Assembly (NCBI RefSeq): GCF_038432375.1
Contig: NZ_JBCAUS010000002.1
Coordinates: 248,001 to 312,000, forward strand
Direction of reading: 5' to 3'
Source: Methanococcoides sp. LMO-2
GTDB lineage: Archaea > Halobacteriota > Methanosarcinia > Methanosarcinales > Methanosarcinaceae
DNA: 64,000 nucleotides
In this document: positions 11,685-62,136 of the stretch, piece by piece
Numbering within the stretch: position 1 is the first letter of the stretch
Layout: each line of letters starts with the position of its first letter
Notes under the pieces: model-generated
Told to the model about the DNA's origin: nothing
The model's database searches: none
What the model saw: the letters and a program-made list of their open reading frames with translations, nothing else
Made by a program: the position numbers and the translations under genes

Positions 11685-11758
11685 TCTTTTTTGTGATGCT
11701 ATAAACTTCAGGGGCTGACCCAATCACTATAAACATATGCTTGCTCAGCATTTGATCC

Positions 11759-13102
11759 CTAGCTCATTACAACGACACGATATTCCTGACCAACAGGGAC
11801 CTTCATGTTGGTTACAGTATAAGTAACTCCATTTTCTGCTTCAATTTCCGGAATCTCATCACTCTGGACCTGATCCCAGGCCATACCTTCCTCGGACGAT
11901 TCAAGATATGTATAAATTATCACATCTTCCGCAGTTGCAGAACCAACGTTCGTAACTTCAATATCAAGATCCACATATGTATATGCAGTTGTTATTTTTC
12001 CGCTTCCTGTGAATTCTATCTGTAACTGTGGATATCCATAGCCTATCGGAGTTATTATTGCTTCTGTATTTCGATATTCATTAGGTATCACACCAACATC
12101 CCATCCGGAATTGGTTGTTTCAAGATAGAAATATTTGACACCATTATATTCATAGTAGCTTCCTGAGAGGCTATCATCTCCCTGCACACCTACTGCCATG
12201 TGGTCAGGTAACAGTATCAGTGCGACCCCATATCCCATTTCATGCAGAAGTGATGTCAGGAGGATGGATGAGTCTTCACAGTCCCCACCACCATGATATA
12301 GTGTCTCGAACGGGAATCTTGGGTATTCATCGTAGCCTGCGGAAGCACTATCACTGATATAAGGAAGGGACTGGACAAAAGCTGTTGCAATATACGGGAT
12401 CTCATCTTCTCCATAATCACCTTCAGCAGCTAGAGCTTCCAGCTGTGTGGTTATCTGGGATATCACAACGTCATCGTAAGGATCATTGGCAAACTGATCA
12501 TAATCCCTGCTTCTGCTTCTTTCTGAATATAATTCGTAGCTCTCTTTGTCGTATTCAGCCTGTAACCAAAAGTCCGTATTGTCATATTCCCATTCATAGG
12601 TACGTGTAATGGAATCATCGGTCAGTTTTATTGTGACTTTGGTTTCAGACTCAATAGTTATTGGTTCAGTTTCCAGATATATCTCCGGCTTCAGCTCATA
12701 GGTCAGGTCAATGGAAAAACTGCTGTCGTAGATCTTGTCCAGCTTTATAGTGTAAACGTTATTTTCCCCGTCCAGGTCCTTCACATTATATGTCTGTCCT
12801 GTGGATATTGTCTTTCTGGAATATTGTACTCCATCTTTGCGGAAGGAAAATTCTACAAAGTTCTCTTTCCGATCGATCTCCAAAACCTTCAGTGAATATC
12901 CATTTTCAAGATCAAGTATCGCGGTTTTTTTGAGAGTTGTGTTATATCTCTCAATTTGTTCAGTTGTTGCAATTTCCGGATCTTCAATATCTGGCAATCC
13001 ATTTTCTTCCGGATATCCTTCATCTTCTTCTGCTATGCAACCCATGCATGAGCAAATGATCACAAAAAGTAGAAAACAGAAGATCGATCCTTTGATGTCC
13101 AT
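11759..13102 (-). CDS. Lipoprotein with transglutaminase-like domain; TAG stop
   Basis: A 447-residue lipoprotein (lipobox SCMGC, Cys22). An S-layer-like beta domain (about 60-160: GYSLKVLEIDRKENFVEFSF) precedes a transglutaminase-like Cys-His domain (about 205-345: GGGDCEDSSILL with the nucleophile, LPDHMAVGV with the His) and a C-terminal CARDB-like domain. Such proteins may cleave or cross-link surface proteins; the substrate is unknown. The only gene in the window ending in TAG (11759-11761). Reading through it would add 16 residues before TGA at 11708-11710. Confidence 0.85.
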   Translation of the reverse strand: MDIKGSIFCFLLFVIICSCMGCIAEEDEGYPEENGLPDIEDPEIATTEQIERYNTTLKKTAILDLENGYSLKVLEIDRKENFVEFSFRKDGVQYSRKTISTGQTYNVKDLDGENNVYTIKLDKIYDSSFSIDLTYELKPEIYLETEPITIESETKVTIKLTDDSITRTYEWEYDNTDFWLQAEYDKESYELYSERSRSRDYDQFANDPYDDVVISQITTQLEALAAEGDYGEDEIPYIATAFVQSLPYISDSASAGYDEYPRFPFETLYHGGGDCEDSSILLTSLLHEMGYGVALILLPDHMAVGVQGDDSLSGSYYEYNGVKYFYLETTNSGWDVGVIPNEYRNTEAIITPIGYGYPQLQIEFTGSGKITTAYTYVDLDIEVTNVGSATAEDVIIYTYLESSEEGMAWDQVQSDEIPEIEAENGVTYTVTNMKVPVGQEYRVVVMS

Positions 13103-57836: not shown

Positions 57837-59951
57837 ATGGAATCGAGATCGAAATCCCGGATTCGTGGGAAGTATGTTAGTATTGGAATAACGATTGCCA
57901 TAGTGATGATGCTGATCCTGTCAGGTCCTGTAAGTGCTGTTAAGCTGGGAATTACAGGTTTGGATGGAACTCACGCATAGGGCAGTACAGTAACATTTGA
58001 TGTGAATGCAACGATTGAATCTAGTGACAGTTATGTCCCTATTGAGAACTTAAAATTACAGATCTCAGGTGCTACTTCAAAAGAAATTGTATTCTCTAAG
58101 GACGGGACTGTACTATCAGGGGATGCAGGTATCGATATAACATGTGTTTCAGCTCCGTAGCCAATAGATGGTGGTGATTCTGAATATAAAGATGATTATG
58201 GCTACGGTTATGGCTATGGTTACGATTCATTTGGCTATGGCTATGACTTCGGCTATGGTTATGGTTACGGCTATGGCGGTGGTGCAGGCGGCGAAGACCT
58301 TGTGTATTAGTATACCATTACCCTTGATACATGCATACTTAATGCTGGTGACCACGAAGCTGTACTGGCTCTGAACACAGGTAATGAAGCAAAGCCTTCA
58401 TTTAGTTCACCAGTTGTATCTTTTGCAATAGAGGAACCTTCTGCAAACGTAGCTCCTGTTGCTGATATCAATGGTCCGTACAGTGGTGTTGCAGGAACAT
58501 CCATATAGTTCTCCAGTGCCGGATCAAACGATCCTGATGGAACCATTGCTTCCTATTACTGGGAATTTGGAGATGGTAAGACCAGCACATTGGAGGATCC
58601 ATCAAATACTTACAGCTCAGCCGGAACTTACACAGCAAACCTTACAGTAACGGATAATGATGGTGCAACGAACACATCCAGCACTGCAGTAACTGTAAGC
58701 GCTTCTTCCAGTGGCGGTAGCAGTGGTGGCAGTAGTAGCAGCTCCTCCGGTGGTGGAGGTGGAGGCGGATCAACTGGCGAAGCTTTCGCTAACATTGCTT
58801 TCAAGGATGTAAAATCAAAAACCATCATAGGCGGACTCGAGGTAATATATGTCTTCGATGATGAGGAGAATCCAATTCAATACATCAAGTTCTCTGCACT
58901 GAGGAACAGCGGAAAGGTTTCAACGACAATTGAAGTTCTTAATGACAGATCATCAATGGTCGATGAAAATTGTCCTGGATTTGGTTACAGCAACCTTAAC
59001 ATCTGGGTTGGCAGGAACGGATTTGCTACAGATAGTAACATTGCAGATCCTGTAATAGGTTTCCGTGTCTCAAAAGAATGGTTGGCAGAGAATGGAATTG
59101 ATGAAGATTCAATAGTACTGTATCGCCACAATTCAGGCAGGTGGAATGACCTCAATGTTGAGAAGGTTGATGAGGATGCTTCATACATTTACTTCGAAGC
59201 CGAAACGCCAGGATTCTCACCATTCGCTATTGCAGCAGATATTGATGACGGAGCTGTAGCAGATATTGTTCCAATAGAAGAAGGCACAGGTACTATCATT
59301 ATCACTGAGCCATCTGGGGATGATGTGAACGAAACAGGATCCGAAGAAGGAACTGGACTGGGACTAAATGTGTTGTTCTTTGTAATCCCTGCCCTCATGG
59401 TTATCGGAGTACTCTATGCTTCATATGTAGTAAAGAACAAGCGTGAAGATTCAGAATACAGGCCAGATGATTACTCTGATGACCTGGATGATGATGTTTC
59501 TGGAACCGCTGTAGGTCTAGCAACTGCTGAAGATGTCTCTGGTGAGCCTTCTGAAATAGCACCTGCTGTCGAGGATATCTCTGGCGAGTCTTCTGAAATA
59601 ACACCTGTTATTGAGGATCTCTCCGATGAGTCTTCTGAAGTAACTCCTGTTGTTGAGGATCTCTTCGATGAGTCTTCTGAAGTAACTCCTGTTGTTGAGG
59701 ATGTTTCAGGCGAACCCTCTGAAACGATATCTACACGTCAGGATAAAAAAGTCCAGCCGGATGATATTGATCAAATGCTCAAATCGGTGAACGATATTGA
59801 AAATTTACTCAGATCGATGAGAGATTCTGATAATGTCTCAGGTGATATACAAACTGCAAAGGATGATGCTTCTGAAACAACATCAGATAGCACAAACAAT
59901 CAGAAGGCCGAAGAGAAGAAGCAAAAGAAATTTGATGACAGCAAATGGTAA
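57837..59951 (+). CDS. Surface protein with four in-frame TAG codons (probable multi-pyrrolysine protein)
   Basis: From ATG 57837 the frame runs 705 codons to TAA at 59949-59951, interrupted only by TAG at codons 48 (57978-57980), 108 (58158-58160), 158 (58308-58310) and 224 (58506-58508). There is no in-frame TAA, TGA or frameshift. Layout: signal or membrane segment (about 14-34), cohesin-like beta domain with a Gly/Tyr-rich insert (about 117-150), PKD domain (about 205-285), Ser/Gly linker, PGF-pre-PGF-type domain (about 315-466), membrane helix (about 507-532), and an acidic cytoplasmic tail with five 14-residue repeats. The three clearest TAGs align with Lys and Glu of the paralog at 60379 and with the Gln usual in PKD domains. 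All TAGs lie in the extracellular part. If TAG terminates, only 47 residues are made. Confidence 0.7.
59529..59738 (+). repeat. Five 42-bp coding repeats in the tail of the surface protein
   Basis: Five copies of a 14-residue unit of the form ED(V/I/L)SGE(P/S)SE(I/V)(A/T)P(A/V)(V/I). They encode the acidic cytoplasmic tail; the third and fourth are almost identical in DNA, indicating recent slippage or unequal exchange. Confidence 0.8.
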
Positions 59952-59978: not shown

Positions 59979-60015
59979 GAAGGGTTGACCAAAACCCTTC
60001 TATTTTTCTTTTTTA
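59979..60015 (+). terminator. Hairpin plus T-run after the multi-TAG gene
   Basis: GAAGGGTT (59979-59986) pairs with AACCCTTC (59993-60000), then a T-rich run. An equivalent hairpin follows the paralog. The rest of 60016-60288 is A+T-rich without a gene. Confidence 0.8.
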
Positions 60016-60378: not shown

Positions 60379-62136
60379 ATGCGATTAGGATCTGGAAATC
60401 ATATAAGGTATGTTAGTATTGGAATAACGATCGCCATAGTAATGATGATGGTTCTGTCAGGTCCTGTAAATGCAGTTTCGATGGGTATTACAGGTCTGGA
60501 TGGCACCACTCATACAAAGGGCAGTTCTGTAACATTTAATGTTACTGCAACTATAGAAGACTCTGACAGGTATGTTCCAGTTGATAATTTCTCATTACAG
60601 ATTACAGGTGCTACCTCCAGGGAAGTTGTATTTTCAACAGATGGTACTGTGCTATCTGGAACAGGTATAAAAGTTGAAGCTGTTACAGTTCCATCATCAG
60701 AAGAATATGGTGATGGCCATGGCTATGATTCCAGATTGGATTCCAACCATGACTTTGGATACGGTTATGGTTTTGGTACGACTGGTTCAAGCCTTGTATT
60801 CGAGTATTCTATTACTCTTGATACATCTACACTTAGTTCCGGTGACCATCAGGCTGTATTAGCCCTGAATACAGGTAATTTAGCAAAGCCTTCATTTAAA
60901 TCAACTTCTGCGACCTTTATAATTAAGTCATCCAGCAGTGGTGGCGGTGGTTCCTCCGGCGGTGGCGGTGGAAGTGGATCGACAGGTGAAGCCTACGACA
61001 ACATCGCATTCAAGGATGTAAAAACAGAGAACATTGTAGGTGGACTTGCAGTTAGTTTTGTCTTCGATGATAATCAGAATGCGATCCAATACATCAACTT
61101 CAATGCAGTGAGGAACTATCAGAGAACCTCAACAACTATCGAGGTACTTAAGAACACGTCTTCAATGGTCGATGAAAGTGCTCCGGGACTTGTTTACAGC
61201 AACCTTAACATCTGGGTTGGTAAATCCGGATTTGCCACAGAAGATAACATTGCTGATCCTGTAATAGGCTTCAGTATATCAAAAGAATGGTTGGTAGAAA
61301 ATGGAATTGATGAGGATTCAATAACACTGTATCGCCACAATTCAGGCAGATGGAATGCTCTTAATACTGAAAAGATCGATGAGGATGATTCATACGTCTA
61401 CTTCGAAGCAGAAACTCCCGGGTTCTCTCCATTTGCTATTGCAGCGGATGTTGATGATGAGGAAGTAGTAGATATTGTTCCAATAGAAGAAGATACCAGT
61501 ACTATCATTATCACTGAGCCATCGGTAGAGGACATGAATGAAACAGACTCCGAAGAAGGAACTGGTTTGGGACTAAATGTGCTGTTCTTTATAGTACCAC
61601 TACTCATGATTATTGGAGTTCTCTACGCTTCTTATGTGTCAAAGAACAAAGATGATGATGCAGAATACAGGCCAGAGGATCACTCAGATGGTCTACAGGG
61701 TGTAGAAGGTAATATTTCAGGAGCTTCTTTAGATATCTCTGGTGAGTCTGCTGAGGCAATATTTGTAGCCCAAGACGATTCAGAAGAATCTGATGAAGTC
61801 ACATCTGTCGTTGAGGATACTCCAGTTGATACTTCCGAGATCCAACCTGCTGCAGGGGATGTCTCCGTTGAACCTTCTGAATCAACTCCTGCTATTAAGG
61901 ATGTGCCAGTCGAACCTTCTGAAAAAGATGAAGCCCCGCAACAAGATATCGATCAAATGCTTAAATCTGTGAATGATATTGAAAAATTGCTCAGGGAGAT
62001 GAGAGAGGCTGGAAAAGACTCTGATGGCGTACAAGCTGGAGTTGATGTTGTTTCTGAAGAGACTGCAGATAGCACAAATGACCAACAGGCCGAAAAGAAG
62101 AATAAGCCTAAAAAGTACGACGATAGTAATTGGTAA
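60379..62136 (+). CDS. Membrane-anchored PGF-pre-PGF surface protein (paralog without TAG)
   Basis: A 585-residue paralog of the multi-TAG gene: signal segment (about 10-33), cohesin-like domain with a shorter Gly/Tyr region, a Ser/Gly-rich linker, PGF-pre-PGF-type domain (STGEAYDNIAFKDVK ... YFEAETPGFSPFAIAAD), membrane helix (VLFFIVPLLMIIGVLYASYV), acidic tail and the same ending (DIDQMLKSVNDIEKLL, YDDSNW). It lacks the PKD domain and has no in-frame TAG. ATG at 60379 lies six bases after AGAGG; a TTG six bases earlier is in the site. Likely an S-layer-associated protein exposed outside and anchored inside. Confidence 0.9.
   Translation: MRLGSGNHIRYVSIGITIAIVMMMVLSGPVNAVSMGITGLDGTTHTKGSSVTFNVTATIEDSDRYVPVDNFSLQITGATSREVVFSTDGTVLSGTGIKVEAVTVPSSEEYGDGHGYDSRLDSNHDFGYGYGFGTTGSSLVFEYSITLDTSTLSSGDHQAVLALNTGNLAKPSFKSTSATFIIKSSSSGGGGSSGGGGGSGSTGEAYDNIAFKDVKTENIVGGLAVSFVFDDNQNAIQYINFNAVRNYQRTSTTIEVLKNTSSMVDESAPGLVYSNLNIWVGKSGFATEDNIADPVIGFSISKEWLVENGIDEDSITLYRHNSGRWNALNTEKIDEDDSYVYFEAETPGFSPFAIAADVDDEEVVDIVPIEEDTSTIIITEPSVEDMNETDSEEGTGLGLNVLFFIVPLLMIIGVLYASYVSKNKDDDAEYRPEDHSDGLQGVEGNISGASLDISGESAEAIFVAQDDSEESDEVTSVVEDTPVDTSEIQPAAGDVSVEPSESTPAIKDVPVEPSEKDEAPQQDIDQMLKSVNDIEKLLREMREAGKDSDGVQAGVDVVSEETADSTNDQQAEKKNKPKKYDDSNW

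What the first reader, a model, noticed from the sequence alone, without database searches (positions are those of the whole stretch)
57837..59951. Surface protein whose frame contains four TAG codons and no other stop: candidate multi-pyrrolysine protein
Seen: 705 codons, four TAGs (codons 48, 108, 158, 224), no TAA or TGA, no frameshift, intact start site, promoter and terminator. TAG 1 sits at a Lys and TAG 3 at a Glu of the paralog (AAG and GAG to TAG); TAG 4 sits where PKD domains normally have Gln (CAG to TAG); TAG 2 falls in a variable loop. Random decay would be expected to produce TAA and TGA as well. Known: Methanosarcinaceae insert pyrrolysine at TAG, until now mainly in single-TAG methylamine methyltransferases. 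Inference: four pyrrolysines in the extracellular half of an S-layer-type protein, which might give reactive side chains or make the protein only when pyrrolysine is available (methylamine growth).
Basis: partly seen in the sequence, partly recalled or inferred. Interest (0 to 1): 0.93.

Follow-up and report, generated by a model that had tools for sequence, protein, structure and literature searches.

The report
Surface protein with four pyrrolysine codons
A methanogen cell-surface protein gene is interrupted four times by TAG, but in this genus TAG is almost never a stop and is conserved inside core enzyme genes, so the gene very probably makes one full-length protein with four copies of the rare amino acid pyrrolysine, most likely as a tolerated by-product of the altered genetic code rather than for a special purpose.

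Summary
In detail: window 57837-59951 (+) is one 704-codon frame with TAG at codons 48, 108, 158 and 224 and no other stop. The genome (genus Methanococcoides, inferred) has tRNA-Pyl(CUA), pylS, pylB, pylC, pylD and two mtmB genes with one TAG each. The decisive evidence is genome-wide. In 464 kb, TAG ends only 6 of 386 called genes, and at least 3 of those 6 are internal TAGs. TAGs in an aspartase/fumarase-type lyase and in a biotin carboxylase subunit sit at the same codon in 7 of 9 and 6 of 10 genomes of the genus. TAG is therefore a sense codon here, and four TAGs are not a sign of decay. The region between the TAGs aligns to intact homologues, with dN/dS 0.16-0.34, like intact pairs. TAG sites match variable residues (K/Q; Y/S/L; E/Q/K; Q/S/T/N) and no homologue has them, so a dedicated role for pyrrolysine is unsupported. 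From memory, this is the published archaeal 'Pyl code' (Kivenson et al., Science 2025; not in the library). What is new is a four-Pyl surface protein, denser in TAG than expected (P about 7e-7 for this gene, post hoc). There is no peptide evidence.

The parts
57837..59951 (+). 704-codon surface-protein gene read through four TAG codons, ending in TAA
   Evidence: homology over whole length
57873..57941 (+). N-terminal hydrophobic signal/anchor (residues about 13-35), conserved in all homologues
   Evidence: sequence and alignment
57978..57980 (+). TAG 1 (codon 48); homologues have Lys (AAG/AAA) or Gln (CAG)
58158..58160 (+). TAG 2 (codon 108); homologues Tyr (TAT), Ser, Leu or gap
58308..58310 (+). 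TAG 3 (codon 158); homologues Glu (GAG), Gln (CAG), Lys
58506..58508 (+). TAG 4 (codon 224) inside the PKD domain; homologues mostly Gln, Ser, Thr, Asn
58446..58697 (+). PKD domain (residues 204-287)
   Evidence: Pfam PF18911, 82.8 bits
58782..59234 (+). PGF-pre-PGF domain (residues 316-466)
   Evidence: NCBIfam TIGR04213, 179.9 bits
59358..59426 (+). C-terminal transmembrane segment (approximate), followed by an acidic, repeat-bearing tail of about 175 residues
   Evidence: read from the sequence
59979..60000 (+). terminator-like hairpin followed by T run
60379..62136 (+). intact tandem paralogue without internal TAG and without PKD (585 aa)

Best explanation
The gene encodes a full-length, membrane-anchored surface protein: N-terminal signal/anchor, a roughly 165-residue N-terminal domain, a PKD domain, a PGF-pre-PGF domain, a transmembrane segment and an acidic tail. 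All four UAG codons are decoded as pyrrolysine by tRNA-Pyl(CUA) charged by PylS. This happens because TAG is a general sense codon in this genus (the 'Pyl code'), not because of a recoding signal in this gene. The TAGs probably arose by one-base changes at codons for variable, mostly polar residues (such as AAG, TAT, CAG or GAG) and persisted because Pyl is tolerated there. SHOWN by sequence: the open frame, the pyl machinery, near-disuse of TAG as a stop, conserved in-frame TAGs in core enzymes, purifying selection on this frame. INFERRED: actual translation, Pyl identity at each site, surface location, near-neutral origin.
For: Frame. tRNA-Pyl with CUA anticodon next to pylS; PylS 686.8, PylB 557.9, PylC 502.3 and PylD 370 bits, all over curated cut-offs; two mtmB with one TAG each. 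TAG ends 6/386 called genes in 464 kb versus 215 TGA and 165 TAA; 3 of these 6 continue into coding sequence of the same protein. The lyase TAG is at the same codon in 7 of 9 genomes (CAG and TGG in the other two); the carboxylase TAG in 6 of 10, where the rest have sense codons in the gapless frame. Two other species' samples: TAG ends 1.3% and 2.6% of called genes, with further internal TAGs in recognisable proteins. N-terminal domain dN/dS against six intact homologues 0.16-0.34, intact pairs 0.21-0.36; 10 of 89 conserved columns changed versus 11 of 90 in the intact paralogue. Without read-through the product would be a 47-residue signal-peptide fragment.
Against: No peptide, ribosome or transcript data. 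No other genome examined has an orthologue with the same TAGs; the nearest genome (G004) has a different 1043-aa protein at the locus. dN/dS over long divergence cannot exclude very recent loss of function. The gene sits beside an intact paralogue, so it could be redundant. aRF1 is present as one ordinary copy, and pylB ends in TAG in all 11 genomes, so some termination at UAG remains possible.
Confidence: 0.8

Rival explanations
1. Decaying pseudogene: a redundant tandem copy that has begun to accumulate lesions, of which only TAGs happen to be present so far.
For: An intact paralogue lies 0.4 kb downstream and the locus is variable between species. TAGs are private to this copy.
Against: Four neutral nonsense changes would come with roughly 90-160 other substitutions and probably indels, yet there is no frameshift and conserved columns are as intact as in the functional paralogue. 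P(4/4 TAG) 0.012-0.025. In a genome where TAG is sense, TAG is not a lesion at all. Terminator and leader are intact.
Confidence: 0.1
2. Adaptive pyrrolysine: the four Pyl residues were selected for surface chemistry (an electrophilic imine side chain) or to make the protein depend on pyrrolysine supply, the yield falling as the fourth power of read-through efficiency.
For: TAG density is far above the genome background: 4 in 704 codons versus 10 in 108,215 elsewhere, Poisson P 7e-7 for this gene, about 0.002 after allowing for ~2300 genes. All four lie in the first third of the protein, the extracellular part (P about 0.01). Conditional UAG decoding is known in Acetohalobium (Prat et al. 2012, quoted in PMC8211752).
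Against: Positions are not conserved and homologues carry ordinary residues there. The density was noticed before it was tested. Clustering in fast-evolving surface domains is also expected under tolerance.
Confidence: 0.12
3. UAG is read by another tRNA (near-cognate suppression with Lys, Gln or Tyr) rather than as pyrrolysine.
For: Homologous residues at the sites are Lys, Gln, Glu, Tyr, one base from TAG.
Against: A dedicated CUA tRNA, its synthetase and all three biosynthesis genes are present.
Confidence: 0.04

Closest known systems
Archaeal 'Pyl code' (Kivenson et al., Science 2025, 'An archaeal genetic code with all TAG codons as pyrrolysine'; cited from memory, not in the searchable library)
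   Same: TAG nearly absent as a stop, TAG as sense codon in many ordinary genes of pyl-bearing methanogens, Methanococcoides among them as I recall
   Different: This report adds one gene with four TAGs in a surface protein; I could not check whether that paper lists this protein
Methylamine methyltransferases MtmB/MtbB/MttB
   Same: In-frame TAG read as Pyl by the same pylTSBCD system; two single-TAG mtmB copies exist in this genome
   Different: There Pyl is one conserved catalytic residue; here there are four at non-conserved, probably exposed positions of a non-enzyme
PGF-pre-PGF domain surface proteins of Methanosarcinaceae (TIGR04213)
   Same: Domain well above cut-off; signal/anchor and PKD domains are common in the group
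   Different: Four TAG codons; ends in a transmembrane segment and a long acidic tail instead of a short PGF-CTERM signal
Read-through candidates of earlier in-frame UAG surveys (PMC1242214, PMC3639795)
   Same: UAG inside non-methyltransferase genes of pyl-bearing archaea, such as a CobN homologue, and the suggestion that some arise by neutral evolution
   Different: The passages read deal with genes interrupted by one UAG; no multi-UAG surface protein was found by term search in these two papers

Membership tests
Pyrrolysine-decoding organism | tRNA-Pyl with CUA anticodon | tested here: met
   ARAGORN, L009:801-872
Pyrrolysine-decoding organism | PylS, PylB, PylC, PylD | tested here: met
   all above NCBIfam cut-offs
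Archaeal Pyl code (TAG as general sense codon) | TAG almost unused as terminator | tested here: met
   6/386 called genes in 464 kb, at least 3 of them internal TAGs; 1.3% and 2.6% in two other species
Archaeal Pyl code (TAG as general sense codon) | In-frame TAG conserved in non-methyltransferase genes across species | tested here: met
   lyase 7 of 9, carboxylase 6 of 10 genomes at the same codon
Archaeal Pyl code (TAG as general sense codon) | No gene relies on TAG as a stop | tested here: inconclusive
   pylB ends in TAG in 11/11 genomes of the genus; read-through would add 42 further residues overlapping pylC
Archaeal Pyl code (TAG as general sense codon) | Pyl detected at TAG sites by proteomics | not testable with these tools
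   no mass-spectrometry data available
PGF-pre-PGF surface proteins | TIGR04213 domain | tested here: met
   179.9 bits, cut-off 28
PGF-pre-PGF surface proteins | C-terminal PGF-CTERM sorting signal | tested here: not met
   the C terminus is an acidic tail after a TM segment (read by eye; no NCBIfam hit there)
Pyl methylamine methyltransferases | MtmB/MtbB/MttB domain | tested here: not met
   only PKD domains in Pfam
Pseudogene | Frameshifts, mixed stop codons, relaxed dN/dS | tested here: not met
   none in 704 codons; dN/dS 0.16-0.34
Pseudogene | No protein product | not testable with these tools
   no expression data

The most novel reading that the evidence does not exclude
The surface protein has been enriched for pyrrolysine by selection: four electrophilic Pyl side chains displayed on the cell envelope, or a protein whose synthesis depends steeply (as the fourth power of UAG decoding efficiency) on pyrrolysine supply and so reports methylamine growth.
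Probability: 0.12. Interest if true: 0.9.

Novelty: new member of a known kind. Interest (0 to 1): 0.55.

Why it matters
Automatic annotation under table 11 would call this a pseudogene or a truncated 453-residue fragment. Read correctly, it is a natural protein with four pyrrolysines, all in the extracellular part, and so a good test of how well cells read several UAGs in one message and whether Pyl in non-catalytic positions is neutral or useful. The conserved TAGs in the lyase and carboxylase genes are independent sequence evidence that TAG is a sense codon across much of Methanococcoides.

Tried and rejected
Chance run of TAGs outside a gene: rejected by homology over the whole frame. Ordinary pseudogene: considered and rated low (selection test, lesion arithmetic, TAG as sense). 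Control with TAA or TGA read as sense gave mostly in-frame operon neighbours with a start codon just after the stop, not interrupted genes. AlphaFold2 on residues 1-300 with the paralogue as second row gave mean pLDDT 42.7, so exposure of the TAG sites could not be modelled. The genome-contig scan returned mainly PKD-domain matches, no nearby orthologue. The paper library did not hold the Pyl-code paper. No RNA family or tRNA in the window. A search of 80 other genomes of the family for homologues of the N-terminal domain found none with TAG.

Full report
OBSERVATION. Window 57837-59951 (+) reads as 704 codons plus a terminal TAA, with TAG at codons 48, 108, 158 and 224 and no TAA, TGA or frameshift inside. 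Under table 11 only a 47-residue fragment and a downstream 453-residue TTG-started ORF without a signal peptide would be seen. A terminator-like hairpin follows the gene (59979-60000), and the leader before the ATG (AGAGGTTGAATATG) resembles the leaders of the intact homologues.

WHAT THE PROTEIN IS. The N terminus has a hydrophobic signal/anchor followed by a roughly 165-residue domain found in other Methanosarcinaceae. Then come a PKD domain at residues 204-287, a Gly/Ser linker, a PGF-pre-PGF domain at residues 316-466 (179.9 bits, cut-off 28), a transmembrane segment and an acidic tail. An intact tandem paralogue without PKD and without internal TAG lies at 60379-62136. In genome G009 the same neighbourhood (sugar-nucleotide and glycosyltransferase genes, surface protein, cytochrome remnant) holds a single intact, TAG-free copy. 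In the nearest relative, G004, a different 1043-aa PGF-pre-PGF protein is in place. The locus is therefore variable, as surface-protein loci often are.

THE ORGANISM AND ITS CODE. Genome G000 has tRNA-Pyl with a CUA anticodon directly upstream of pylS, with pylB, pylC and pylD following, all above NCBIfam cut-offs, and two mtmB copies with one TAG each. One genome of the genus, G002, has 2,575,032 bases, which from memory is the chromosome length of Methanococcoides burtonii DSM 6242; the genus name is an inference from that. In 464 kb of G000, a simple codon-usage gene caller found 386 genes ending TGA 215, TAA 165 and TAG 6. Of the six TAG ends, three continue into coding sequence of the same protein: an aspartate ammonia-lyase/fumarase-type enzyme, a biotin carboxylase (pyruvate/acetyl-CoA carboxylase) subunit and a delta-60-repeat protein. 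The lyase TAG is at the same codon in 7 of 9 genomes of the genus, with CAG and TGG in the other two. The carboxylase TAG is present in 6 of 10, the other four having a sense codon in the same gapless stretch. Samples of two other species give TAG at 1.3% and 2.6% of called gene ends, with further internal TAGs, for example in a VWA-domain-like protein of G002 and a PAS-type kinase of G004 (these two names are mine from the sequence). TAG is thus a sense codon in this genus. From memory, not from the library, this is the 'Pyl code' reported by Kivenson and colleagues in Science in 2025; three library searches did not find that paper.

IS THIS GENE ALIVE? Between the TAGs the protein is homologous to six intact genes from five genomes. 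Pairwise dN/dS against them is 0.16-0.34, the same range as between intact genes (0.21-0.36). At columns invariant in the other six it changed 10 of 89, while the intact paralogue changed 11 of 90. Random nonsense mutation would give four TAGs out of four with probability 0.012-0.025, and would bring roughly 90-160 other substitutions. Each test is moderate alone; with TAG as sense codon in the genome the decay reading loses its starting point. The tests do not exclude a very recent loss of function, and there are no expression data.

WHY FOUR? The sites correspond to K/Q, Y/S/L, E/Q/K and (in PKD domains) mostly Q/S/T/N in homologues, each reachable from a common codon by one base change. No homologue found in a search of 80 other genomes of the family has a TAG in the N-terminal domain. 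Elsewhere in the sample there are 10 internal TAGs in 108,215 codons, so 0.065 would be expected here; P(>=4) is about 7e-7 for this gene and about 0.002 after allowing for 2300 genes, though the gene was picked for this property. All four lie in the first 224 codons. The most economical explanation is tolerance: a fast-evolving extracellular region in which Pyl is harmless, possibly helped by redundancy with the paralogue. A selected role (surface chemistry, or dependence on pyrrolysine supply) remains possible, at about 0.12. Under simple competition with release factor, full-length yield goes as the fourth power of decoding efficiency: about 0.89 at 97% per site (the highest figure quoted in PMC8211752), but very small at low efficiency. 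The protein would therefore be a sensitive reporter of UAG decoding.

VERDICT. The framing as exceptional recoding does not hold, because TAG is a general sense codon here, and the proposed functions are unsupported. It is a new and unusually TAG-rich member of a known kind.

Noticed in passing
L138:7123-8163 (G000 contig C6), pylB: pylB ends in TAG, one base before the ATG of pylC, in 11 of 11 genomes of the genus, although TAG ends only 1-3% of called genes; read-through would add 42 further residues overlapping pylC out of frame. Of 19 pylB ends read in other genera of the family, 5 also end in TAG, 13 in TGA and 1 in TAA. This could be a pyrrolysine-dependent feedback or translational-coupling device for the pyl operon.
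   Followed up: partly
L132:17493-18848: Aspartate ammonia-lyase/fumarase-type gene with an in-frame TAG directly before the motif ELNMGGTAVGTGLN, conserved in 7 of 9 genomes (CAG or TGG in the others).
   Followed up: yes
L134:16933-18426 (- strand): Biotin carboxylase (pyruvate/acetyl-CoA carboxylase) subunit with an in-frame TAG before GVTTNIPFH, conserved in 6 of 10 genomes.
   Followed up: yes
window 11708-13045 (- strand): Protein with a weak S-layer-related domain match; the frame has one TAG 16 codons before the next stop, so under the Pyl reading it gains a 17-residue tail.
   Followed up: no
L137:13268-14494 (- strand): Delta-60-repeat protein with one in-frame TAG in the middle of its repeats, then a C-terminal transmembrane segment.
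   Followed up: no
window 59530-59740: Acidic tail with imperfect tandem repeats (DxSxExSEVTPVVED) that vary in number in relatives; the 1043-aa G004 protein has many more copies.
   Followed up: no
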